NCBI GenBank assembly: GCA_020342235.1
Contig: CP073217.1
Coordinates: 186,001-250,000 of the forward strand
Length of the DNA: 64,000 nucleotides
Direction: 5' to 3'
Source: Saccharomycopsis phalli
Lineage: Eukaryota; Ascomycota; Saccharomycetes; Ascoideales; Saccharomycopsidaceae
The notes under the pieces were generated by a model. That model ran no database searches. It was not told the DNA's origin and saw nothing but the letters and a program-made list of their open reading frames with translations. Made by a program: the position numbers and the translations under genes. Shown here piece by piece: positions 7,067 to 44,858 of this stretch; position 1 is the first letter of the stretch, and every line of letters starts with the position of its first letter.

Positions 7067-9339
7067 TTCAAAATCTTTTAACCTATTTTGCAATCACTCT
7101 AGTGGCACGTTCGCTTCCTATCGCTCTTCCTGAAGAGCTGATGCCAGGATCTCAGAATGCTTTAGCCAGTGATCTTGCCGTCAACTCCACCGAAATTGTC
7201 GCCAATTCCACTGATCAAGTCCAGAACAAGTTTTTGGGGGCGCTTATTAGCGGTGCTCTACGAATAGCTGGTGCTGCTGCCAAATCTGCTCCTAAAGCTG
7301 GCAGAGCTGCCGCTAAAGCGGGAAGGGAAGCAGTGGTTAGTAGCAGTGGAGGATCTGATTCCGATAAGAAGGCTCAAAAGGATGCTAAGAAGCAAGCTGA
7401 CCAAGCTGCAAAAGCTGAAAAAGCTGCTAGGGATAAGGCTGACAAAGAACAAAAGCAGGCTCAAAAGGATGAAAAGAAGCAAGCTGACCAAGCTGCAAAA
7501 GCTGAAAAAGCTGCTAGGGATAAGGCTGACAAAGAACAAAAGCAGGCTCAAAAGGATGAAAAGAAGCAAGCTGACCAAGCTGCAAAAGCTGAAAAAGCTG
7601 CTAGGGATAAGGCTGACAAAGAACAAAAGCAGGCTCAAAAGGATGAAAAGAAGCAAGCTGACCAAGCTGCAAAAGCTGAAAAAGCTGCTAGGGATAAGGC
7701 TGACAAAGCTAGTAAGAAGCAGGCTGACAAAGATGCTAACAACCAGCAGAGCCAAAATTCTAACAATCAGCCGGGCATAGATGTTAACCTCCAGACTGTG
7801 CAAGATGCTAACAACCAGCTTGGGCAAGATGCCAACAACCAGCCTGGTCAAGATTCCAACAACCAATCTGGCGATGATCTTAGAGATAAGGCTACTGAAG
7901 AAGCTATTAAGAAAGCTGCTGAAGCAGCTAAGAAGAAGGCTGCCGAAGAAGCTAAGAAGCAGGCTGAAGAAGCCGAGAAGCAGGCTAAAGAAGCTAAGAA
8001 GAAGGCTGAACAAGAAGCTAAGAAGAAGGCTGAACAAGATGCTAAGAAGAAGGCTGAACAAGAAGCTAAGAAGAAGGCTGAACAAGAAGCTAAGAAGCAG
8101 GCTGAACAAGAAGCTAAGAAGCAGGCTGAAAAAGATGCCAAGAAGCAGGCTGAACAAGAAGCTGAGGACAAGCATGGTAAAGGTCCTGACAAGCCGCCTG
8201 GTGAAGATATCGACATCCATCCGGACATAGGTGTTAACCCCCAACCAGACATAGATGTTAACCTCCAACCAGGGGAAGGTTCTAACGGGCAGCCTGGTAA
8301 TAATGGTAAGAATAATGCTGACAAAGATGCTAAGAAGAAGGCTGAAAAGGAAGCTAAGAAGAAGGCTGAAGAAGATAAGAAACAGGCTGAAGAAGATAAG
8401 AAACAGGCTGAAAAAGCTAAGAAGCAGGCTGAAAAAGATGCCAAGAAGCAAGCTGAAGATGCTAAGAAGCAAGCTGACGCTGAACATAAAAAGGAAGCTG
8501 ACGCTGCTAAAGCTGCTGAAAAGGCTGCAAAGGAGAAAGAAAAGGCTGATGAAGATGCTAAGAAGCAGGCCGAGAAAGATGCTAAGAAGCAGGCCGAGAA
8601 AGACAAGAAGCAAGCTGAGAAAGACAAGAAGCAGGCTGAGAAAGAACAGAAGCAGAGTGATAAAGAGGCTAATAAGCAGGCTGAAAATGATCCTAAGAAG
8701 CAGCAAGACTCTGAATCTTTGTCTGATGGAGAATCTCTGTCCGGAATGCTTGATACATTACAGGGTACCGCTAGTGTTGGATCTGGTGTTGCTTCAATGC
8801 TTGGCAATTCTCAAGACGGAAACTCCCCGGAAAATACTGATGGGTCTCCTGATAATGGGCCTGATGGTGAAAAAGTCGATTCTGGTGACAATGGTGCTAC
8901 TAATCCGGATGCTCCTGCTGATGGCATTTCCGACACTGTTGCAAATGCCACTTCTACTGATCTTCCATCTGGCGTTCCTGTCTCATCTCTGTCTATTGTG
9001 TCCTCTGATGTTGAGCTGCAGACTTCTGCTGTTTCCCTTGTATCTCCTCCTCCATCTCCACATCGCGTGAAACCAAAAATCCCCGCAGTTCTTTCTCTGA
9101 ATCCAACTGTTTCATCATCAACTCCAACGTCCACCTCTGCAAATGTTGTTCCTCCTATGAACTCCGTTGCTTCTACTACGAGTCCTGCTGCTTCTCTTGC
9201 ATCTGCTCTTCCTCCTCTACTACTATCTGCAGTTCCTCTTCCAAGTTCAGTTCCTCCTCCAATCGCTGCTCCTCTTCCAAGTTCTGCTCCTGTTGCTTCC
9301 AATCCGTCTGCTGGTCAGATGTCTGGAGGGCAACGGTAG
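7060..9339 (+). CDS. Secreted Lys/Ala/Glu-rich repeat protein
   Basis: 759 residues, no family recognised. Residues 1-19 form a signal peptide (hydrophobic core followed by ARSLP), then a short segment with two N-glycosylation sequons (NST). A glycine/alanine-rich, positively charged amphipathic stretch lies at about 58-90. Residues 104-216 are nearly four 29-residue tandem repeats built of KKQADQAAKAEKAARDKADK. Next come an NNQ-rich linker (about 227-270), two long blocks of AKKKAEQE/AKKQAEKD-type repeats (about 280-400 and 430-560) and a Ser/Thr/Pro-rich tail to the end. The K/A/E blocks would form a long charged helix or coiled coil resembling the TolA linker in composition only. No C-terminal GPI signal is evident. 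This suggests a secreted or wall-associated structural protein. A tiny relative lies downstream at 10191. The repeats read openly in several frames, so the opposite-strand frames are by-products. Confidence 0.85.
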   Translation: MLIQNLLTYFAITLVARSLPIALPEELMPGSQNALASDLAVNSTEIVANSTDQVQNKFLGALISGALRIAGAAAKSAPKAGRAAAKAGREAVVSSSGGSDSDKKAQKDAKKQADQAAKAEKAARDKADKEQKQAQKDEKKQADQAAKAEKAARDKADKEQKQAQKDEKKQADQAAKAEKAARDKADKEQKQAQKDEKKQADQAAKAEKAARDKADKASKKQADKDANNQQSQNSNNQPGIDVNLQTVQDANNQLGQDANNQPGQDSNNQSGDDLRDKATEEAIKKAAEAAKKKAAEEAKKQAEEAEKQAKEAKKKAEQEAKKKAEQDAKKKAEQEAKKKAEQEAKKQAEQEAKKQAEKDAKKQAEQEAEDKHGKGPDKPPGEDIDIHPDIGVNPQPDIDVNLQPGEGSNGQPGNNGKNNADKDAKKKAEKEAKKKAEEDKKQAEEDKKQAEKAKKQAEKDAKKQAEDAKKQADAEHKKEADAAKAAEKAAKEKEKADEDAKKQAEKDAKKQAEKDKKQAEKDKKQAEKEQKQSDKEANKQAENDPKKQQDSESLSDGESLSGMLDTLQGTASVGSGVASMLGNSQDGNSPENTDGSPDNGPDGEKVDSGDNGATNPDAPADGISDTVANATSTDLPSGVPVSSLSIVSSDVELQTSAVSLVSPPPSPHRVKPKIPAVLSLNPTVSSSTPTSTSANVVPPMNSVASTTSPAASLASALPPLLLSAVPLPSSVPPPIAAPLPSSAPVASNPSAGQMSGGQR
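7372..7708 (+). repeat. 87-bp coding minisatellite, about 3.9 copies
   Basis: Units starting GCTCAAAAGGATG at 7372, 7459, 7546 and 7633. They are nearly identical at the nucleotide level, which points to recent expansion within the secreted-protein gene. Because 87 is a multiple of three, copy-number change keeps the frame. Confidence 0.9.
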
Positions 9340-18186: not shown

Positions 18187-19110
18187 TTTGATTTGAAGTC
18201 AGTTGATTAGAAAATTTAATAATGATCTTACAGCGAATGGTGTTCATTTTATACCTGCATTTATGAGTTGATTAGTGAACATAATTCAAGATTATGTAAA
18301 AATAGCTGCTGAGGAATGCATTGGGTAGATTAGTAATATGGTGACACATGGTAGCAAACAATAGATTTATTTTGATTGTATCTTGAAATGAACATTACTT
18401 GTAGCGATTATGAGATAATAAGATTATTATTATTATTAGTTTGCCTTTTGATATAATTATGGCTAATCCATGTAGAGCGTGTTACTTAATTGTAAATCAA
18501 AATCTAAAGCGCAATTAGTGATACTACATGACTTCTACACAAAAAATTACCAATGAACATTTTGGTAGCTTTTGCGAATCACAATGATGGTATTACGTAT
18601 CCTCCTTGGTCCAGAAATTTGGAACCACCAAATTCAAATCACTCATTAATTAAGACGCCAATCTGCAATACAATTCCAACAAGAGATATAATGTCGTCGT
18701 TTATAGATTTCTCTAAATTAGAAATATTAACCACTAAATATTTGTTTTTGTTCCTTTAGGATCTGGATAACCGGATTAGGCTTTGCTACATACTGAGATC
18801 TAACTGAATTAGCTATTCAAGTCTCTTCTTTCTATAGAGGAAAGTCGCCCTTCTTATAGAAAGTACAACGGTCTTCTTTAAGATTCTTGTTTACGAATAC
18901 GATGATGATGAACCTTGTTTGGAGACCTCACTATTATATTAACAGAGGAGGTTGGATAGTTGTTCCCCGCATCATTAAGTATGCTCGTTTATTCTGCCAT
19001 GGTTCAGAAATCACGGCACATAAATATATATAGTATGCTGGTATTCGTTGTTGAAGCCAGATGTGTTAACCAGGTTTCAATATTCAGTTCGGTTGAAGTT
19101 TCATGGAGTA
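18187..19110. other. Intergenic region, no gene seen
   Basis: AT-rich, upstream side of the DIP1984-family gene. A small frame at 18553-18759 shows no recognisable protein. Ends at the GAGTA target duplication of the next element. Confidence 0.4.
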
Positions 19111-20133
19111 TGACGTAATCTAGCAGATCCTTATGGCATCCATATCTTCTATTATAGATAATTCATCTTCTTGTTACTATTCTAGCTATTTTCTGTCCTA
19201 TTTATATTATTCTTTAAGATGCATTCAGTTATCCTTAACTTCAGATGTCTGTACCGGTGATCTCCTTAATGTATGACCCCACTGTCCATCTCCTTAATTT
19301 ATGAGATCCCCAATAGGACGATCTCCTTAATCTCTAGGATTTTCGACATCTTCAACATTTAATCTCTCAGATCTTCGACATCTTCAACACCCTCCCTTAA
19401 CTGAAAGCTTCTCATTCCACACAGAAATTAACTCATTGAATTTACTATCTGCTAGAATCTTTGTGAGCACGTCTGCAATATTTCTTCAGCACCAAGTTCT
19501 TCATCCTATGGTTCTAACCATCAAAGCATTTCTTTGACCCTACCGCCAATTATAGTTTCTTCAATTTCTTTGATCAATCGTTTCTGAAGCCTTCCACTTC
19601 AATTTCCTGCGCCATAGACATAGCGGAATAATAGCAGCTACCTTCATCAAAAACTAAGCATGCGTCACCGTAGCAATAATTAGTTTCGTCGGATAAAACA
19701 ACCGACACCTCTCATAGTGCTTCATATTATATGTAGACTCTCATCATCAATGGAATTTCATCAAAACTTGATAACCCATCAGTCATAACTGTTTTCCATC
19801 AGCACTTCTCCGGTTCTTTATTCGCATATATCATAACTCTTCACTTAACTGCCTTGATGCATTCATTCCTTTACCCCATTTTGCTAAGAATATCAGGAAA
19901 ATATCAACCCATGACGGGCTCCCATGAAACTGGTGAATAACTTTATTTCCAAATCTTCCACTTTAATCAGTCCTAACTATACCAACTCAGTGCAGTGATC
20001 CTTTACTCTGAAGTTGTCTCTCACTGACAATAATAAGCTTAATTAGCACTTCAATGCTTTCTGAAATACTTTCTTTTCCTTGTATTTCCTTTCATTGTAT
20101 CGATGATTTCAATCATGTCAGCTGCATAAATCA

Positions 20134-20452
20134 TCACAGCTCCTTCACTAATCACAGCTCCTTCACTAATCACAGCTCCTTCACTAATCACAGCTCCTTC
20201 ACTAATCACAGCTGTTTCACTAATTACCGATCTTTCACTAATTACCGATCTTTCACTAATTACCGATCTTTCACTAATTACCGATCTTTCACTAATCACC
20301 AATCTTTCACTAATCACCGATCTTTCACTAATCACCGATCTTTCATTAATCACCGATCTTTCACTAATCACCGATCTTTCATTAATCACAGCTCCTTCAT
20401 TAATCACAGCTGTTTCACTAATCACAGCTGCTTCACTAATTACAGCTGTTTC
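20134..20452. repeat. 18-bp minisatellite inside the non-autonomous element
   Basis: About 18 tandem copies of an 18-bp unit of the form TCACTAATCACAGCTCCT, with two main variants (..CACAGCTCCT and ..CACCGATCTT) arranged in blocks. Since 18 is a multiple of three, several frames stay open. The resulting six-residue periodic peptide is a consequence of the repeat, not evidence of a protein. Confidence 0.95.
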
Positions 20453-20569
20453 ACATCATTGTCTTTCATTTGGTCCAACTTTGCTTCTTCGCCAATGAAA
20501 CTAGAACTTCCTGAGCGTCATTACTATCCTGGTCAATCATATCTATTTGCCACTTGACATCCATGTCTG

Positions 20570-21052
20570 CTAATAAATCTCCTGACTATCCATAAGTCTC
20601 TTAATAAGTCTCCTGACTATCTATAAGTCTCTTAATAAGTCCCCTGACCTTCCATAAGTCTCTTAATAAGTCTCCTGACTATCTATAAGTCTCTTAATAA
20701 GTCCCCTGACTATCCATAAGTCTCTTAATAAATCTCCTGAGTATCTATAAGTCTCTTAATAAGTCCCCTGACCTTCCATAAGTCTCTTAATAAGTCTCCT
20801 GACTATCCATAAGTCTCTTAATAAATCTCCTGAGTATCTATAAGTCTCTTAATAAGTCCCCTGACCTTCCATAAGTCTCTTAATAAGTCTCCTGACTATC
20901 CATAAGTCTCTTAATAAATCTCCTGAGTATCTATAAGTCTCTTAATAAATCTCCTGACTATCTATAAGTCTCCTAATAAGTCTCCTGACTTTCATAAGTC
21001 TCTTAATAAGTCTCCTGACTTTCCATAAGTCTCTTAATAAGTCTCCTAATAA
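20570..21052. repeat. 31-bp minisatellite inside the non-autonomous element
   Basis: About 15 tandem copies of a 31-bp unit (CTGACTATCCATAAGTCTCT plus TAATAAGTCTC). Variants CTGACCTTCC and CTGAGTATC recur in a regular order, suggesting higher-order amplification of two- to three-unit blocks. Distinct from the 18-bp array 120 bp away. Confidence 0.95.
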
Positions 21053-21982
21053 TCCCAACACAGAAATCCGATACCTCTTTTCCCCCTTTGACAGCTGAAC
21101 CTATACTAGGGTCAGCTTCATTCGAGGTAGAGGATCCACTATTAAGTGCTTCTCTAAAACTCCTCATAATTTGATTCACAGGATTATTAATATTCTAATA
21201 AGTATCTTTGGGCAGTCTATTTTGCAATAAAATTCCATTGAGAGCATCTAATCCATTAGTTGCTTTAGTCAATAGACCATTGGGCGAACTGTCTGGTAAA
21301 CCACGACCCCCCATTAACAAGATACTGAACAAGACCAATGCCATACGGATCAAACTTCTGAACGAACACCTTTGCCCATCTGGCATAACTGGTAGCTCTT
21401 CGCAACTTTTCTGTTGGGTGAAAAACAGCCGCGCTTCAGGGTAACTCATAACCTGACGTAATCTAGCAGATCCTTATGGCATCCATATCTTCTATTATAG
21501 ATAATTCATCTTCTTGTTACTATTCTAGCTATTTTCTGTCCTATTTATATTATTCTTTAAGATGCATTCAGTTATCCTTAACTTCAGATGTCTGTACCGG
21601 TGATCTCCTTAATGTATGACCCCACTGTCCATCTCCTTAATTTATGAGATCCCCAATAGGACGATCTCCTTAATCTCTAGGATTTTCGACATCTTCAACA
21701 TTTAATCTCTCAGATCTTCGACATCTTCAACAGAGTACAGTCCTTTCATAACGATTCAATACCGACTGTATATATGTAGTTTCTGAATATAATTGGATAC
21801 ACACTAAAATTAAATATTCGTGTCATCCAGCAGACTCTGGATATGCCAATGTGGGTTCATCAAAGTTGTGTCAGTGCCATCAATCAGTAGAGATTCTCAT
21901 GCGTCACGTGATATTATTGATTTACATCACCCGGCCGATGAGCATGTTTTTATAGTTTGGTGATTCCTTGTTAGAAATTTGC

Positions 21983-24073
21983 ATGCGCATCGCCCTCTAT
22001 TTTACGCTCCTTCTCCGAGTGTTTGGAAAGCCTTCTGATTCAAAATCAGACGGTTCTGATGTTGAACTACCATCTGCGCTCACTAAAGACAATTTTGACC
22101 AGGTTTTAGGAAGCAGTCTTCACCTTGTGGAGTTTTTCTCGCCGTACTGTCACCATTGCAAACAGTTGGAACCGATCTGGAAAAAAGTATACCAGGGCCT
22201 CCAGCAAGATGATGAGAAGTTGGGTATTGAAATGCGACAGGTTAATTGCGTTGAACAAGGCGAGTTATGTGATAAGGAGGCGGTCAAGTTCTATCCTAAC
22301 TTACGGATATATGGTCCAAACCAGGGCCACAACGGCGGGGTATTACTTACAAGCTACCCGGGTAACGTCGAAAAGACCGAAGACAGTCTCAGAGAGTTTA
22401 TAAAAGACTCGGTGTTTCAATACGGAGATGTGGACAAATTGCATCTTCCATCCAAGAGTAAACTTCTCAAGACAAGTAATTTGACCGAAATCTTGGCCGG
22501 TGAGCACAAGAAACCGATCCTTGTGTCATTCTGGCCGACAAATGACAAGCTGTTTACGGATATCAACATACAGGAGGACATATTTGATTTGTGCGACTCA
22601 TGTCTCGAATTCCAGGCTATGTGGAACATCGTGCTGAATCAGTTGCACGAGGTGATTGATATTGGGCACGTTAACTGCGAATCGAACTCTGTGATCTGTT
22701 CGGAACTCGGATTTAAGGATTTGAGTGGGAGACCGGGTCGAAACCGTGACCCACGGGTCGTGGCTATACTTCCCAAGACCACAGGGAACCTTGTGAAGTA
22801 TACTGGTGTGGTTTCTGGGAATGACATTGCATCCTGGACAAAACGGTTGCTACAGAACTACCAGTTGGAAGACGTGGATCCGTATATGTTGTCGCAGAAG
22901 ATGCAGCTTACGAACAGACTCATTAACGAGCCAAAGAGTGACCTCCCAGGACCAAACGACAACAAGGTGAGTTTTGTTTTTTTGTATGATGCCGAGCGGT
23001 CGACTGAAGAGGACTTCCAGGTGCTTCCATACCTTTTTGAGCCGATTATGCGACTTCCGGATGTATATCTTTACAAATCAAACAACACGGGGTTCCGGAA
23101 GCTTATCCAGCGTCAGTCGGAGAACATGTTGCGGTACATCCACTACAACGACTCCGAGCCTGTGCTTGAGTTCAACCAGGAGATGTTTATCTCAAACACC
23201 GTGACGTCACTTCCAACTGTGATCGGATTCAAGGACAATAGCTTGGTGCCCGTTGTGTTCCAGAACTTTGGACCGGATGATATTCGCGATCCAAAGTTGG
23301 TGGAGAGTTTTATCCGACGGAATAGCTTGCCATTTGTCAGTGAGCTAACCCCCGAGAACTTCCACAAAATCTTCACGTTGAAGAACCTGAACTTAGACAA
23401 GGTTGTGGTCGCATTCTTCGACTCAGGAGACCATGACCACACGCATGTTGCCCTTAACAATTTAATGTTGGCTGCACACGACTTTCACTACTATTGGACA
23501 GAGTACAAGTACATGCAGTTAAAGAATCGTCGCCAGAAGAAGGATGCGCGAATAAAGAAGCTACAGGATGCGGGTAAGAACAGTGATAAAATTACCGAGG
23601 CAATGGCGGCAGAAATTATGTACGAGACCCACGGAGAGACGGTGTTCACGTACCTCGACTTGAACAAGTTCCGTAATATGATTAATGAGAAGGGATGGAA
23701 CATCAGCGGAAAGAAGAACTATGTCAAGGGCGACGTTATTATAATAGAGCGCACGGGGAAGTTCTACTACGAGAGTGACATCTACGGAAACGACCTCAAA
23801 AACGAACCTTGGATTTTACGTAACACTTTGATGAGTTTTCATGACAACAACTACGTTGTCAAGCCCTTGAAAAAAAACTTGATTCACAGTCCCTACGGGA
23901 ATTATCTCCGCCACATGGACTATATCCATCGCCATGGTTTCTTTGGCTACTTGCTTGTAGTTTCGTTGGTTGTGGCAGTGTATAGTTTGACGAAGAAGTA
24001 TTGGCGTGGTGGCATCAAATACAAGAAATTGGGGCGTGGTATTTTGGGTAATGAAGAAGGAAAGAGTGACTAG
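21983..24073 (+). CDS. EPS1: Membrane-bound ER protein disulfide isomerase (Eps1-like)
   Basis: 696 residues from the ATG at 21983; the frame extends a little upstream without an ATG. Signal peptide at 1-15 (MRIALYFTLLLRVFG). A thioredoxin domain carries the active site CHHC at 56-59 within FFSPYCHHCKQLEPIW. There follow further thioredoxin-like segments without CxxC, sequons such as NNT and NDS, a charged helical region near 510-550, and one C-terminal transmembrane segment (about 653-671) followed by a short basic cytosolic tail. S. cerevisiae Eps1 has the same plan and almost the same length (701), and acts in the ER in folding and quality control of plasma-membrane proteins such as Pma1. 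The tail here ends GKSD, without an obvious dilysine signal. No intron. TMX3-like PDI is an equivalent naming. Confidence 0.9.
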   Translation: MRIALYFTLLLRVFGKPSDSKSDGSDVELPSALTKDNFDQVLGSSLHLVEFFSPYCHHCKQLEPIWKKVYQGLQQDDEKLGIEMRQVNCVEQGELCDKEAVKFYPNLRIYGPNQGHNGGVLLTSYPGNVEKTEDSLREFIKDSVFQYGDVDKLHLPSKSKLLKTSNLTEILAGEHKKPILVSFWPTNDKLFTDINIQEDIFDLCDSCLEFQAMWNIVLNQLHEVIDIGHVNCESNSVICSELGFKDLSGRPGRNRDPRVVAILPKTTGNLVKYTGVVSGNDIASWTKRLLQNYQLEDVDPYMLSQKMQLTNRLINEPKSDLPGPNDNKVSFVFLYDAERSTEEDFQVLPYLFEPIMRLPDVYLYKSNNTGFRKLIQRQSENMLRYIHYNDSEPVLEFNQEMFISNTVTSLPTVIGFKDNSLVPVVFQNFGPDDIRDPKLVESFIRRNSLPFVSELTPENFHKIFTLKNLNLDKVVVAFFDSGDHDHTHVALNNLMLAAHDFHYYWTEYKYMQLKNRRQKKDARIKKLQDAGKNSDKITEAMAAEIMYETHGETVFTYLDLNKFRNMINEKGWNISGKKNYVKGDVIIIERTGKFYYESDIYGNDLKNEPWILRNTLMSFHDNNYVVKPLKKNLIHSPYGNYLRHMDYIHRHGFFGYLLVVSLVVAVYSLTKKYWRGGIKYKKLGRGILGNEEGKSD

Positions 24074-39960: not shown

Positions 39961-42900
39961 TGTTGAAGATCGTGTTGAAGATCTGAGAGATTAAGGAGAT
40001 CGTCCTACTGGTGATCACATAAATTAAGGAGATCGACAGCGATATCATACATTAAGGAGATCACCGGTAAAGGTATCTGAAGTTAAGGATAACTGAAGGC
40101 ATCTCAGAGAAAAATATAAATAGGACAGAAAATAGCTAGAATAGTAACAAGAATAAGAATATCTACAACAGTAAGATATGGAAGCCATTGAAAGAAACGC
40201 TAGCTTACGACAGGTTATGAGTAACCCTGGAAGCGAGGCAACTTTTGAACCAACAGAAAAGTTGCAAGGAGCTACCAATTATGCTCGATGGGCAAAGTTG
40301 TTTGTCTACAAGCTCGATCTGATTGGTTTCGGTCTTGTTCAGTACCTTGTTCATGGGGACCTTGGATTACCAGATGGATCACCAAATGAAGTGGTAAATA
40401 ATGCGGCGACTGTTTTAGATGGTATTATTGCGTTATTATTACGAAAGGGAGTTACTGAAAAGGTTGCACAATATACTGAGAGAATTCAATGCTCGACTGC
40501 ACGAGAACGGTTCCATACAATCAAGGCTGAGTATGGGACAATGTCATTTGCTCAAGCAGTCAAGGGTACAATCAGTGTATCGCCATCTTCCAGCACACTA
40601 TCGCCATTTGAATATGCTATGGAACGGCATCGGAACTACTTTTCAAACTTTGATCAGGAAATGCAATCATGCATTATTGGGATCTTTATTCTTCGACAAG
40701 AACAAGTTCCGGAACATGTTATCCAAAACTTTATTGACCGGTATGATAATCGAGGAATTAATGCGGAAACTTCAAATTTTATGCATCTTTTTAGCAAAAT
40801 GGATGGTGAATATCAGGCTGGTAATAATCATTCGGCATTTCTAGGACATCGGAAGGTACGACGTCAGGTGACCTGTTTTAAGTGCGGTAAAAAGGGACAT
40901 GTGAAAAAGGATTGTAAGAAGGTACTTAAGGAAACCGATGATGATGAGAAACATGCATTATCGAAGAACAATCACTCATGGCTTGCATACCATGGGGTTG
41001 CGGAAAGGTATCCCACATATCTTGATAGTGGGGCATCGAGACACTTTATGGCAAACAAGGCGTTATTTGAATCTTTGGAAACCCATGATGATCGGATTAA
41101 AGGAATTGGGGGTCTGTTGGCGATTACTGCAAAAGGTAAAGTTTGTATGAATTTGCTTGGTGGGACTACTATACAATTGAAGGATGCATACTATACTCCA
41201 GGTGGTGAAGTTAATCTTGTGTCAGTTTCACGAGCAACAGACAGTGGGGCTAAAATCTTGTTTGATGGAGAGAAGGCTATTGATTATGTTACAAAACAAG
41301 TAATCGCAATCAAAGAACTGGATACAGGACTCTACAGGATTCAGAACTCTGATAATGGAATTGTTGCTTTTAAAGCTAAATCAAAAGATAATATCGAGAC
41401 TTGGCATCGGCGGTTAGGACATCCTGGTACTAATGTTATGGAAAGTATTAATAAAGAACATGATCTTTGGAATAGTAGCGATCAAATCACTATGTGTGGT
41501 GAATGTTCAGTAACTAAAACTACAGTAAGTATTCCAAAACTGCGAACTACACAGCCGATACAACCACTCCAATTATTACATGTTGATGTGTGTGGACCAT
41601 TTAATTATAAGTCGGTGAATGAATCCAAGTATTTTCTAACAGTGGTTGATGGTTATACTAAATGGACTCATGTGGTATGTCTTAAGAACAAATAGAAAGT
41701 ACAGAAGCATTGATTCAGTTTATTGTTAACAGTGAGAGACAATTTCAGAGTAAAGGATTACAGTTCTGTACTGGTATTGTTAGAACTGATAATGGAGGAG
41801 AGTTTGTGAATAAAGCTCTACATCAGTTCTTTAAAACAAAGGGAATTAGTCATGAGTTGACAGTTCCATATCACTCCTATCAGAATGGGGTGGCGGAACG
41901 CATGCATCGGACCATTCAAGAAAAGACGAGAGCTATGATGCATGCGAGTAATGTGCCAGTAGAACTCTGGCCAGAAGCAGTATTGACTGCAGTCTATCTC
42001 ATTAATAGAAGCCCATCCAGAACTATTAATGGAGAGAGTCCATATTTTAGATGGACTGGAAATAAACCTAATTTGTCCATACTCAGAGTATTTGGATGCG
42101 TGGCTTATGGCAATATTCCGGCTGAGATCCGAGCTGGAAAGTTTGCGGCAACAGGAATTAAGTGTGTTATGCTAGGATATGAAACATTACGAAAGGCATA
42201 TAGGTTGTTTGATCCGGCTAAGCGAACGATTGTAACTGCAACGCATGTTCGCTTTGATGAAGGTAGCTATTATTATTCCGCTGTGTCTATGGCGCAAGAA
42301 GCATCTGCGGAAAACTCAATTGTGGGTATTGGAGGAACGGCCAAGGGTATTGGAGCTGTGCCAGTTAATAGTGATCGGTCAATTAGTACTAAGGTGAAGA
42401 AAAGAAAACGCAAAGTTTCAGGGAGAACTGACCAAGATGACGAAGTTGAATGTGAGAATGTCGATGTGAATAATGAAAATGTTAAGAGTGCTAGTGGGAC
42501 GGACGATACAACAGCAGATAAAGTTATGGATCGTGGTGAAAAGGACCCAACTAGTAATGATACTGAGGACAGTGTTGATACTATCGCAAGTACTACTATT
42601 ACTGATGAGGATAATTTGGCAGATATCAGCGATCATGGTGAAAATTTATCTGGTGATGACATTGAGAGTATAAAGAATGATTCTGGGGACAGTGGAACTT
42701 CATCTACGCCAGATGATGAAAGTTTACATGTATCAAGAAGTGAATCAGAATTCTCTAGTGACACTAATCGGCGTCTCGGACGAACACCAAGGAAACGCTC
42801 TATAAAACATAGTCTGGAAAATCTGAGTAGTACATCTGATGATGGCCCCTCTAGCTCTGATGAAGCTAACCCTATGATACGTTCAGCTTCAAGGGGGGAT

Positions 42901-44858
42901 AAGCGATATCGGGGATCAGATTTGGTAATTAACAGCGGAGATTCGGAATCGAGTAATGACTTCATATCTCTAAAACATAGAATTGTGGTATCGTCAGGAT
43001 CGGAAGAATTAAGTGATGAGGGTATTAATCACGTGGCCACATGTTTAATGGCCGAATCTCATTTACGCAACGACATACCAATAACTTTCACACAAGCAGT
43101 TCGAGGCAATGACAGCAAGAAATGGGAAAAAGCAATTATGGAAGAAATAGAAGCTCATAATCAGAATGGAACTTTTGTTTTAGTTCCTCCTCAAAGACGA
43201 AAGGCAATTTCGTGTCGCTGGGTTTTCTCTATCAAAGATGATGGAAGATATAAGGCAAGGTTAGTTGCGAGGGGATTTACACAAGTGAAAGGGATTGATT
43301 ATACTGAAACATTTGCACCAGTCATAAGATATGAATCAATAAGAATCATGTTATCAATTGCAGGAAACTATGGACTTACTATACATCAGATGGATGTGAA
43401 GACTGCGTTCCTTAATGGAGAATTAAAGGAAGACATTTACATGGAACAACCAGAAGGGTTTGAGGTTAAAGGAAAAGAAGATTATGTTCTTAAACTTGAA
43501 AAGTCGTTATATGGTTTGAAACAAGCACCGCTCGTGTGGAACAACAGGATTAATGATATACTACAAGAGTTGGGCTTTAAGAATAATGCGGCTGAAAATT
43601 GCTTGTATTCAAAGAGAGAGGGCAGCAGTTTTATCATGATTGCACTTTATGTTGATGACATACTTATTGCTGGAAATCAAGTAAGTAATATTCAAAAGGT
43701 TAAAGATCAATTGATGCAACATTTTAAAATGAAAGATTTGGGGGTTGCTACAAAATTTCTTGGAATGAATATTTATCAAGATAGCAAGATTATCAGTTTG
43801 CTGTTGGAGGATTATATTGAAACAATGTTATCAGAATTCCAGATGAGAGATGCAAAACCAGTTGCAATCCCTGCTGCCACAAACCAAGATCTAACAAACT
43901 GTGACAACAACTCAAAACCATGTAATGCTACAGAATACCGATCACTAGTTGGAAAATTGTTGTTTGCGACTAATACTGCCCGTCTTGATATTGGTTATAT
44001 TGTTGGAGTGTTATCCAGATATCTCAAGACTCCAAAAGAAATCCACTGGACAGCAGCAAAGAGAGTGGTGAAATATTTGAAAGGAACAAAGCAGTTGGGA
44101 ATCACATATACGAGAAACAAAGACGCGATGTTAAATGGTTTCTGTGACGCTGACTGGGCGACTGATAAGACAGATAGAAAATCGACGACAGGGTATGTTT
44201 TTAAGTTTGGCAATGGTGCAATTACTTGGAAATCAAGGAAACAATCAACAATTGCATTATCTACTGCTGAGGCAGAATATATGGCTCTTGGAGATGGTGT
44301 TAAGGAAATGTTGTGGTTGAAGCTGGTGTTTAAAGAGCTAGGTATAAAATTGAATGAAGCAGTCATTCATGAAGATAATGCTAGCTGTATTAATATTGCT
44401 AAACATCCAGCGTTACACAATAGAACAAAGCATATTGACATTAGACATCATTTTATTAGAAGTCATATTGCCTCAGGAGAAATGGAACTCAAGCATCTTG
44501 GAACTGAGGAGATGCTAGCAGATATGTTTACTAAGGCTTTGTCTGAGAGACAATTCAAGAAGCTAAGACTTATGTGTGGAATGAGAAGCTTTCAGTTAAG
44601 AGAGGGTGTTGAAGATCGTGTTGAAGATCTGAGAGATTAAGGAGATCGTCCTACTGGTGATCACATAAATTAAGGAGATCGACAGCGATATCATACATTA
44701 AGGAGATCACCGGTAAAGGTATCTGAAGTTAAGGATAACTGAAGGCATCTCAGAGAAAAATATAAATAGGACAGAAAATAGCTAGAATAGTAACAAGAAT
44801 AAGAATATCTACAACAGTAAGATATGGAAGCCATTGAAAGAAACGCTAGCTTACGACA
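39961..44858 (+). mobile_element. Copia-type LTR element, family B, young and nearly whole
   Basis: LTRs at 39961-40212 and 44607-44858 are 252 bp each and appear identical, so insertion was very recent. Flanks TTTCA and TATCA are a target duplication with one difference, placing it inside an A LTR. Gag starts in the LTR (40178). The primer site GGTTATGAG (initiator tRNA-Met anticodon loop) is at 40213-40221. The CFKCGKKGH-type zinc knuckle is near 40880. An aspartic protease (DSGASRHF) is near 41030. Integrase with zinc-binding and catalytic domains spans about 41400-42050. A long acidic, serine-rich spacer spans 42300-43050. Reverse transcriptase (YVDDIL) covers about 43080-43950, RNase H about 44130-44560, and the purine tract AAGAGAGGG 44598-44606. 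Gag and Pol read as one polyprotein, as in copia. It looks whole apart from about one break. Confidence 0.96.

What the first reader, a model, noticed from the sequence alone, without database searches (positions are those of the whole stretch)
19111..21732. Young LTR element whose interior is mostly two minisatellites plus gag-pol debris
The two 279-bp LTRs look identical and a perfect GAGTA duplication flanks the element, so it moved recently. Yet the interior has no usable gene and contains an 18-bp (about 18 copies) and a 31-bp (about 15 copies) tandem array. Primer site and purine tract are preserved. This is a trans-mobilised element carrying satellite DNA, a possible route by which minisatellites spread through a yeast genome. 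It resembles plant LARD/TRIM elements in concept, but a repeat-filled interior in a yeast is unusual. Identical LTRs could also come from gene conversion, but the perfect duplication fits young age.
Basis: partly seen in the sequence, partly recalled or inferred. Interest (0 to 1): 0.8.

Follow-up and report, generated by a model that had tools for sequence, protein, structure and literature searches.

The report
Non-coding yeast retrotransposon growing minisatellites
A yeast genome carries a family of recently moved, gene-less retrotransposons whose interior holds two short-repeat arrays that appear to have grown inside the element, a pattern known from plants and here seen in a compact yeast genome.

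Summary
The two 279-bp LTRs are identical, GAGTA flanks the element, and the arrays are 17.9 x 18 bp and 15.4 x 31 bp. The element reads on the minus strand. It is a non-coding, Ty5-like LTR retrotransposon: primer site matching the host initiator-Met tRNA, purine tract, broken gag and integrase debris. Two older copies are one segmental duplication. Three copies show no difference over 1,244 bp of non-array interior and the LTR, yet carry 17, 16 and 14 of the 18-bp units. The arrays were probably not captured: at the stringency searched, both units lie only inside these seven copies, and older relatives show a graded series, 1 -> 6 -> 14-17 units of the 31-mer and 0 -> 2 -> 11-17 of the 18-mer. 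So the minisatellites most likely arose inside the element. Four of five young copies lie within 25 kb of a contig end. Gene-less Ty5-like elements are known in yeasts, and minisatellite-bearing LTR elements in plants. Verdict: a well-supported new variant of a known kind.

The parts
19106..19110 (.). target-site duplication GAGTA, left
19111..19389 (-). 3' LTR (element is on the minus strand), 279 bp, ends TG...CA; carries a 32-bp unit twice at one end
19390..19398 (-). polypurine tract AAGGGAGGG next to the 3' LTR
19390..19496 (-). 3'-terminal 107 nt kept in common with the Ty5-like coding element of the window (74% identity)
19592..19806 (-). integrase/pol debris, frame broken
   Evidence: tblastn
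19818..20062 (-). integrase-core-like DNA (67% identity to the coding element)
20133..20454 (-). 18-bp minisatellite, 17.9 copies; readable in frame in sense (V-I-S-E-G-A / V-I-S-E-R-S)
20455..20570 (-). 116-bp spacer between arrays, identical in all five young copies
20571..21047 (-). 31-bp minisatellite, 15.4 copies
21068..21133 (-). 66-nt match (82%) to pol DNA of the coding element, out of its normal order
21222..21441 (-). remnant of the gag N-terminus, frame shifted
   Evidence: tblastn
21278..21453 (-). 5'-terminal 176 nt kept in common with the coding element (78.5%); probable leader and packaging region
   Evidence: role inferred
21437..21453 (-). primer-binding site GGTTATGAG-TTA-CCCTG, matching the anticodon arm of the host initiator-Met tRNA apart from 3 inserted nt
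21454..21732 (-). 5' LTR, identical to the 3' LTR
21733..21737 (.). target-site duplication GAGTA, right
39961..44858 (+). related Ty5-like coding element (LTR 85% identical to the element's LTR; Ty5 Gag, RVT_2), split into two ORFs here; type of possible helper

Best explanation
A young non-autonomous Ty5-like (Ty1/copia group) LTR retrotransposon, of the kind yeast authors call LARD. Shown: LTRs, primer site and purine tract are kept, protein coding is lost, and dispersed copies have their own target duplications. Inferred: its RNA is packaged, reverse transcribed and inserted by proteins of Ty5-like coding elements of the same genome. Its two minisatellites probably began as single-copy stretches of the interior and grew inside the element. 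Unit number changes faster than point sequence. I think most of that change happens when the reverse transcriptase slips or switches template within the repeats (step inferred, about 0.55).
For: Five copies have duplications GAGTA, CTGCC, TCAGG, AATGA and AATAT, LTR pairs identical over 279 or 415 bp, and 600-bp flanks without homology to each other. The window copy, C6R and C2R show 0 differences over 1,244 bp of non-array interior and 279 bp of LTR, with 18-mer unit strings of 17, 16 and 14. At the stringency used, both units are found only inside the seven members (66 of 66 matches; 71 of 71). Graded series: 31-mer 1, 1 -> 6, 6 -> 14, 15, 15, 15, 17; 18-mer 0, 0 -> 2, 2 -> 11, 14, 16, 16, 17. 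The PBS begins directly at the LTR in all seven members and matches a tRNA-Met(CAT) gene of this genome; in the C7R copy the match is a perfect 14 nt. Candidate helpers: 83 RT matches in the assembly (some are pieces of one element), 11 of them in open frames of 1,668-1,674 aa.
Against: I found no coding element with LTR or ends closer than about 74-85% to this family (not checked locus by locus), so the helper is not identified. The window PBS matches the tRNA over 9 nt, then has a 3-nt interruption. The C4R copy differs by six single-base indels and no substitutions, which hints at base-level assembly error, so array lengths may also contain errors. The direction of array change is inferred: the older relatives could have lost units. 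The series rests on three lineages only, since the two degenerate relatives resemble each other and the two C1 copies are one duplication. There is no expression, particle or strain evidence. The slippage step cannot be told from ordinary replication slippage or unequal exchange.
Confidence: 0.82

Rival explanations
1. The copies are old and were made identical by gene conversion; LTR identity says nothing about age.
For: Recombination between members does occur: C7R has a 415-bp LTR on a nearly identical interior, and the C1 copy has two different LTRs and no duplication.
Against: Conversion would have to cover both LTRs and the whole interior at three or more loci, up to the element ends, while leaving five different perfect duplications, different array lengths and the diverged C1 copy untouched.
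Confidence: 0.07
2. The arrays are host satellites captured by the element and spread by it.
For: The element does disperse the arrays to new sites.
Against: No unit match lies outside the seven copies at 2 or 1 mismatches, and less expanded and unexpanded states exist in older relatives at the same position.
Confidence: 0.06
3. Copies spread by duplication of chromosome ends rather than by transposition.
For: Four of five young copies are within 25 kb of a contig end (from coordinates); the two C1 copies share flanks at 99.7-99.8% and are such a duplication.
Against: The 600-bp flanks of the five young copies show no homology to each other, and each copy has its own duplication; only short matches, away from the element ends, link two of these flanks to the C1 flanks.
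Confidence: 0.03
4. Array length differences between the young copies are assembly or sequencing errors (this can be partly true alongside the best explanation).
For: C4R shows only single-base indels against the others; the sequencing method is unknown; tandem arrays are error-prone.
Against: Differences are whole units with a different order of unit variants; C7R has a different 31-mer order and the C1 copies a far shorter array.
Confidence: 0.12

Closest known systems
Ty5.L of Wickerhamomyces anomalus (PMC12711049, passages read)
   Different: The passages read mention no minisatellites; this family carries two arrays that vary between copies, and four of five young copies lie near contig ends rather than at centromeres.
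LARD elements with Tps5 of Scheffersomyces stipitis (PMC8546629, passages read)
   Same: Noncoding, non-autonomous elements beside Ty5-like elements in a yeast.
   Different: Described as centromere components; no interior arrays mentioned in the passages read.
Tca1 of Candida albicans (PMC7175516, passage read)
   Same: Yeast LTR element without ORFs.
   Different: 5.6 kb; no interior arrays mentioned in the passage read.
Gmr9/GmOgre minisatellites of soybean (PMC3305785, abstract and discussion read) and Ogre of Lathyrus (PMC7004042, passages read)
   Same: Variable tandem repeats inside an LTR retrotransposon, attributed to the element and spread with it; slippage by reverse transcriptase is named as one possible cause (soybean paper).
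   Different: Plant Ty3/gypsy elements with coding regions; arrays lie downstream of the coding region, before the 3' LTR; some Ogre-derived repeats have become free satellites.
Plant LARDs and TRIMs (sizes from PMC3532108, passages read)
   Same: Gene-less LTR elements.
   Different: LARDs there have about 4.4-kb LTRs and 3.5-kb interiors, TRIMs are under 1 kb; this has 279- to 415-bp LTRs and 2.6-2.8 kb in all.

Membership tests
Ty5-like LTR retrotransposon (Ty1/copia) | PBS directly after the 5' LTR, complementary to the anticodon region of initiator tRNA-Met | tested here: met
   GGTTATGAG starts at the LTR border in all seven members; matches a tRNA-Met(CAT) gene of this genome: 9 nt, then a 3-nt interruption, in six; 14 nt perfect in C7R
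Ty5-like LTR retrotransposon (Ty1/copia) | LTRs TG...CA, 5-bp target duplication, purine tract | tested here: met
   the duplication is perfect in 5 of 7 members, the other two being one rearranged, duplicated copy
Ty5-like LTR retrotransposon (Ty1/copia) | Ty5-type gag-pol coding sequence | tested here: not met
   Only gag N-terminal and short integrase/pol stretches, frames broken; hence a non-autonomous relative, not a Ty5
Ty5-like LTR retrotransposon (Ty1/copia) | insertion in silent-type regions | tested here: inconclusive
   4 of 5 young copies within 25 kb of a contig end (binomial P about 3e-6, zone chosen after the fact), the fifth about 11-13 kb from a Ty5-like cluster; chromatin state unknown, and selection could give the same pattern
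LARD as used for yeasts (PMC12711049) | two LTRs around a few kb of noncoding DNA, cis signals kept, several mobilised copies | tested here: met
   2,568-2,772 bp, five young copies, longest sense stop-free run 134 codons, PBS and purine tract
LARD as used for yeasts (PMC12711049) | mobilised in trans by a coding partner | tested here: inconclusive
   Ty5-like coding elements present; nearest LTR beside coding sequence 85%, ends about 74-82%; no direct pairing
Plant LARD | LTRs of about 4.4 kb and interior of about 3.5 kb (PMC3532108) | tested here: not met
   LTRs 279 or 415 bp, interior about 2.0-2.1 kb in the young copies
TRIM | total length under 1 kb | tested here: not met
   2,568-2,772 bp in the young copies
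Plant Tat/Ogre elements with 3' minisatellites | Ty3/gypsy gag-pol with arrays downstream of the coding region | tested here: not met
   Ty5/copia relatives; arrays sit between gag debris and integrase debris

The most novel reading that the evidence does not exclude
Reverse transcription acts as the engine of minisatellite birth: in this family array length is reset or extended at each copying cycle, so a compact yeast genome holds the whole series from single-copy sequence to 17-unit array inside one mobile element.
Probability: 0.4. Interest if true: 0.65.

Novelty: new variant of a known kind. Interest (0 to 1): 0.5.

Why it matters
How tandem repeats are born is usually inferred from finished arrays. 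Here what look like the unexpanded state, an intermediate and several expanded states of two arrays sit in one 14-Mb yeast genome, some in copies otherwise identical, so growth per copying event could be measured by resequencing. It also adds a Saccharomycopsis-like yeast to those with gene-less Ty5-like elements and shows LTR exchange between subfamilies (C7R).

Tried and rejected
Considered and dropped: a single-copy relic (seven members found); host satellites as the source; spread by chromosome-end duplication (true only for the C1 pair); recent internal deletion of a coding element now in the assembly (ends only 74-79% like the window's coding element, and debris partly out of order); TRIM and plant-LARD class by size. 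Host guess Saccharomycopsis schoenii was dropped: the published assembly has 33.9% GC and a largest scaffold of 3.5 Mb against 40.3% in the window and a largest contig of 2.34 Mb. Whether the 84-aa ORF that starts in the primer site is used was not pursued. Coughlan and Wolfe 2019 (Yeast) on S. stipitis is not held, so I could not check whether its LARDs have arrays.

Rows dropped: of 48 LTR matches, I looked for target duplications at 14 solo-type matches; the element LTRs and the other shorter or weaker rows were left out. Searches of G000 score only the best candidates, so copy counts are lower bounds. Unit counts differ a little by method: the string split gives 7 31-mer pieces in the C1 copies where one search counts 6, and TRF splits that array into several rows.

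Full report
WHAT IS THERE. The window carries two identical 279-bp LTRs (19111-19389, 21454-21732), flanked by GAGTA on both sides. Between them lie an 18-bp array of 17.9 copies and a 31-bp array of 15.4 copies. The element lies on the minus strand: in that direction the LTR runs TGTTGAAG...TTACGTCA, is followed at once by GGTTATGAG, and the interior ends in AAGGGAGGG before the second LTR. The longest stop-free stretch in sense is 134 codons and is the 18-mer array itself. Debris remains: a gag N-terminal stretch (residues 4-76 of the window's coding element) and an integrase/pol stretch (residues 82-137 of its second ORF), with broken frames. One 66-nt pol match lies out of its normal order.

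WHERE IT LIVES. The window is C6:186001-250000 of a 14.15-Mb, 8-contig assembly. A telomere-like repeat, GGATGTGC, is seen at 12 of 16 contig ends. A window protein (PDI/Eps1-like) has its best named relative in Saccharomycopsis crataegensis (61% identity; an unnamed one has 66%), so the host is taken to be a Saccharomycopsis-like yeast, species not named. It does not look like the published S. schoenii assembly. Ty5-like RT matches of 69% identity or more cluster in one stretch on each of C2-C7 and in two on C1, with none on C8, plus a few near the ends of C2 and C3. By analogy with S. stipitis and others (PMC8546629, PMC12711049, passages read) these clusters may be centromeres; this is inference.

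MOBILITY. Own-genome searches gave seven members carrying both interior flanks. Five are young: the window copy (duplication GAGTA, 2,622 bp), C6R = C6:1547653-1550256 (CTGCC, 2,604), C4R = C4:1815251-1817912 (TCAGG, 2,662), C2R = C2:2156229-2158796 (AATGA, 2,568) and C7R = C7:1514430-1517201 (AATAT, 2,772). In each the LTR pair is identical, and the 600-bp flanks of the five show no homology to each other at E 1e-5; short stretches of two of them, not at the element border, match flanks of the C1 copies. The other two members (C1:1620938-1623277 and C1:11794-14133) share flanks at 99.7-99.8%, have unlike LTRs (412 and 284 bp) and no duplication: one rearranged copy, duplicated. Of 14 solo-type LTRs examined (of 48 rows), 10 have a perfect 5-bp duplication; one of these, at C4:9408, is identical to the window LTR, two are only 85-86% alike.

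ARRAYS CHANGE FASTER THAN THE REST. The window copy, C6R and C2R have no difference over 386 + 117 + 741 = 1,244 bp of non-array interior and 279 bp of LTR. Their 18-mer unit strings are ABCDEDEFEGGGHIIIJ, ABCDEDEFEGGHIIIJ and ABCDEDGGHIIIIJ. Their 31-mer strings are the same except for one unit, one substitution, in C2R. C4R has no substitutions but six single-base indels and two more 31-mer units; those indels may be sequencing error, which is a warning about fine detail. C7R has 10 interior substitutions and one gap, 11 18-mer units and a different order of 31-mer variants. In all five young copies the outer 18-mer variants are shared (A-D at one end, J at the other), so change is concentrated inside the array.

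THE ARRAYS PROBABLY GREW IN PLACE. Counting units at 24 of 31 or 14 of 18 matching bases: two degenerate relatives (C2:2161 kb and C3:2114 kb, 77-82% alike in the longer interior matches; 651 bp of each counted) have one 31-mer and no 18-mer; the C1 copies have 6 and 2; the young copies have 14-17 and 11-17. Twenty shuffles of each give means of 0 to 0.15. By eye, a sub-threshold look-alike of the 18-mer stands at the right place in the old relatives. The 31-mer pattern (66 matches, up to 2 mismatches) and the 18-mer pattern (71 matches, up to 1) occur nowhere outside the seven members; more diverged arrays would be missed. So capture of an existing satellite is unlikely, and I see no free arrays seeded. 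The two relatives are themselves about 96% alike over 3.4 kb, so they count as one lineage; the C1 pair also counts once. The series therefore rests on three lineages, and growth rather than loss is the simpler reading, not a proof.

PRIMER AND HELPER. A tRNA-Met(CAT) gene of this genome (C1:365065-365138) has CAGGGCTCATAACC in its anticodon arm; three further exact matches of the arm were listed and not read. C7R's primer site is its perfect 14-nt complement; the other six members carry three extra bases after the first nine. Since the primer tRNA is partly copied during reverse transcription (established for LTR elements, recalled), C7R's perfect match is what a recent tRNA-primed copy would show. 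The window's own Ty5-like coding element (39961-44858; Ty5 Gag, RVT_2) shares the ends with the gene-less element: 78.5% over the first 176 nt and 74% over the last 107 nt, LTR 85%. It is split into two ORFs. In the assembly, 11 of 83 RT matches lie in open frames of 1,668-1,674 aa. So possible helpers exist, but none is shown to be the partner.

LTR EXCHANGE. C7R has the interior of this family (98-100% in its non-array parts) inside a 415-bp LTR of another type. That LTR type has 12 full-length places in the assembly at 100% as rounded, C7R's own two included. Template switching between co-packaged RNAs would explain it; gene conversion is possible.

SITES. Four of five young copies lie 4.7-24.2 kb from a contig end that carries telomere-like repeats. 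For a 25-kb zone the binomial chance is about 3e-6; the zone was chosen after seeing the data, so read this as order of magnitude. The window copy lies about 11-13 kb from the C6 Ty5-like cluster and about 250 bp upstream of the Eps1-like ORF start at 21983. Ty5 itself prefers silent chromatin at subtelomeres (PMC7175516, passages read).

COMPARISON. Gene-less Ty5-like elements of yeasts are known: Ty5.L in W. anomalus and the LARDs of S. stipitis; Tca1 in C. albicans is another ORF-less yeast LTR element. By the sizes quoted for plant LARDs (4.4-kb LTRs) this is not one. Minisatellites or tandem repeats inside LTR elements are known in soybean Gmr9/GmOgre and Lathyrus Ogre. Four literature searches (the first 20 of 131, 12 of 39, 15 of 97 and 12 of 78 papers listed, openings of abstracts seen) showed no yeast LTR element with interior minisatellites; that is not proof of absence in print. 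This element works like the yeast LARDs and, in its arrays, like the plant minisatellite carriers; by its signals it belongs with the Ty5-like gene-less group, not with the plant group.

VERDICT. The added results are the five copies with their own duplications, the graded series and the absence of the units elsewhere, which change the reading from 'a vehicle carrying satellites' to 'a vehicle in which minisatellites are born'.

Noticed in passing
L049:931-3702 (C7:1514430-1517201): Same interior as the window element but inside a 415-bp LTR of another type: LTR exchange between subfamilies.
   Followed up: yes
window 19327-19389 and 21670-21732: The LTR itself carries a 32-bp unit twice; several related solo LTRs (about 247-249 bp) match only positions 1-247, as if they had it once.
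   Followed up: partly
L044 and L045 (C1:1620938-1625909 and C1:9158-14133): A block near the start of contig C1 is duplicated in inverted orientation deep inside C1 (99.7-99.8% flanks); C1 also has two Ty5-like clusters while C8 has none. Could be a real rearrangement or an assembly join.
   Followed up: no
window 32000-62000: Dense Ty5-like elements, RT pieces and 14/40/54-bp arrays of the type ACGGCATTAGCTAA; one Ty5-like cluster per contig on C2-C7 suggests centromeres.
   Followed up: partly
G000 C7:1111990-1121536: Three LTRs about 4,647 bp apart with RT matches between them: coding elements in tandem, apparently sharing LTRs.
   Followed up: no
window 7366-8703: Long tandem repeats (21- to 87-bp units) inside a 759-aa ORF, lysine- and alanine-rich by eye.
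   Followed up: no
L050 1386-1471 (C3): A perfect 16-bp array (5.4 copies) sits next to the unexpanded relative on C3; TRF reported none at its C2 counterpart.
   Followed up: no
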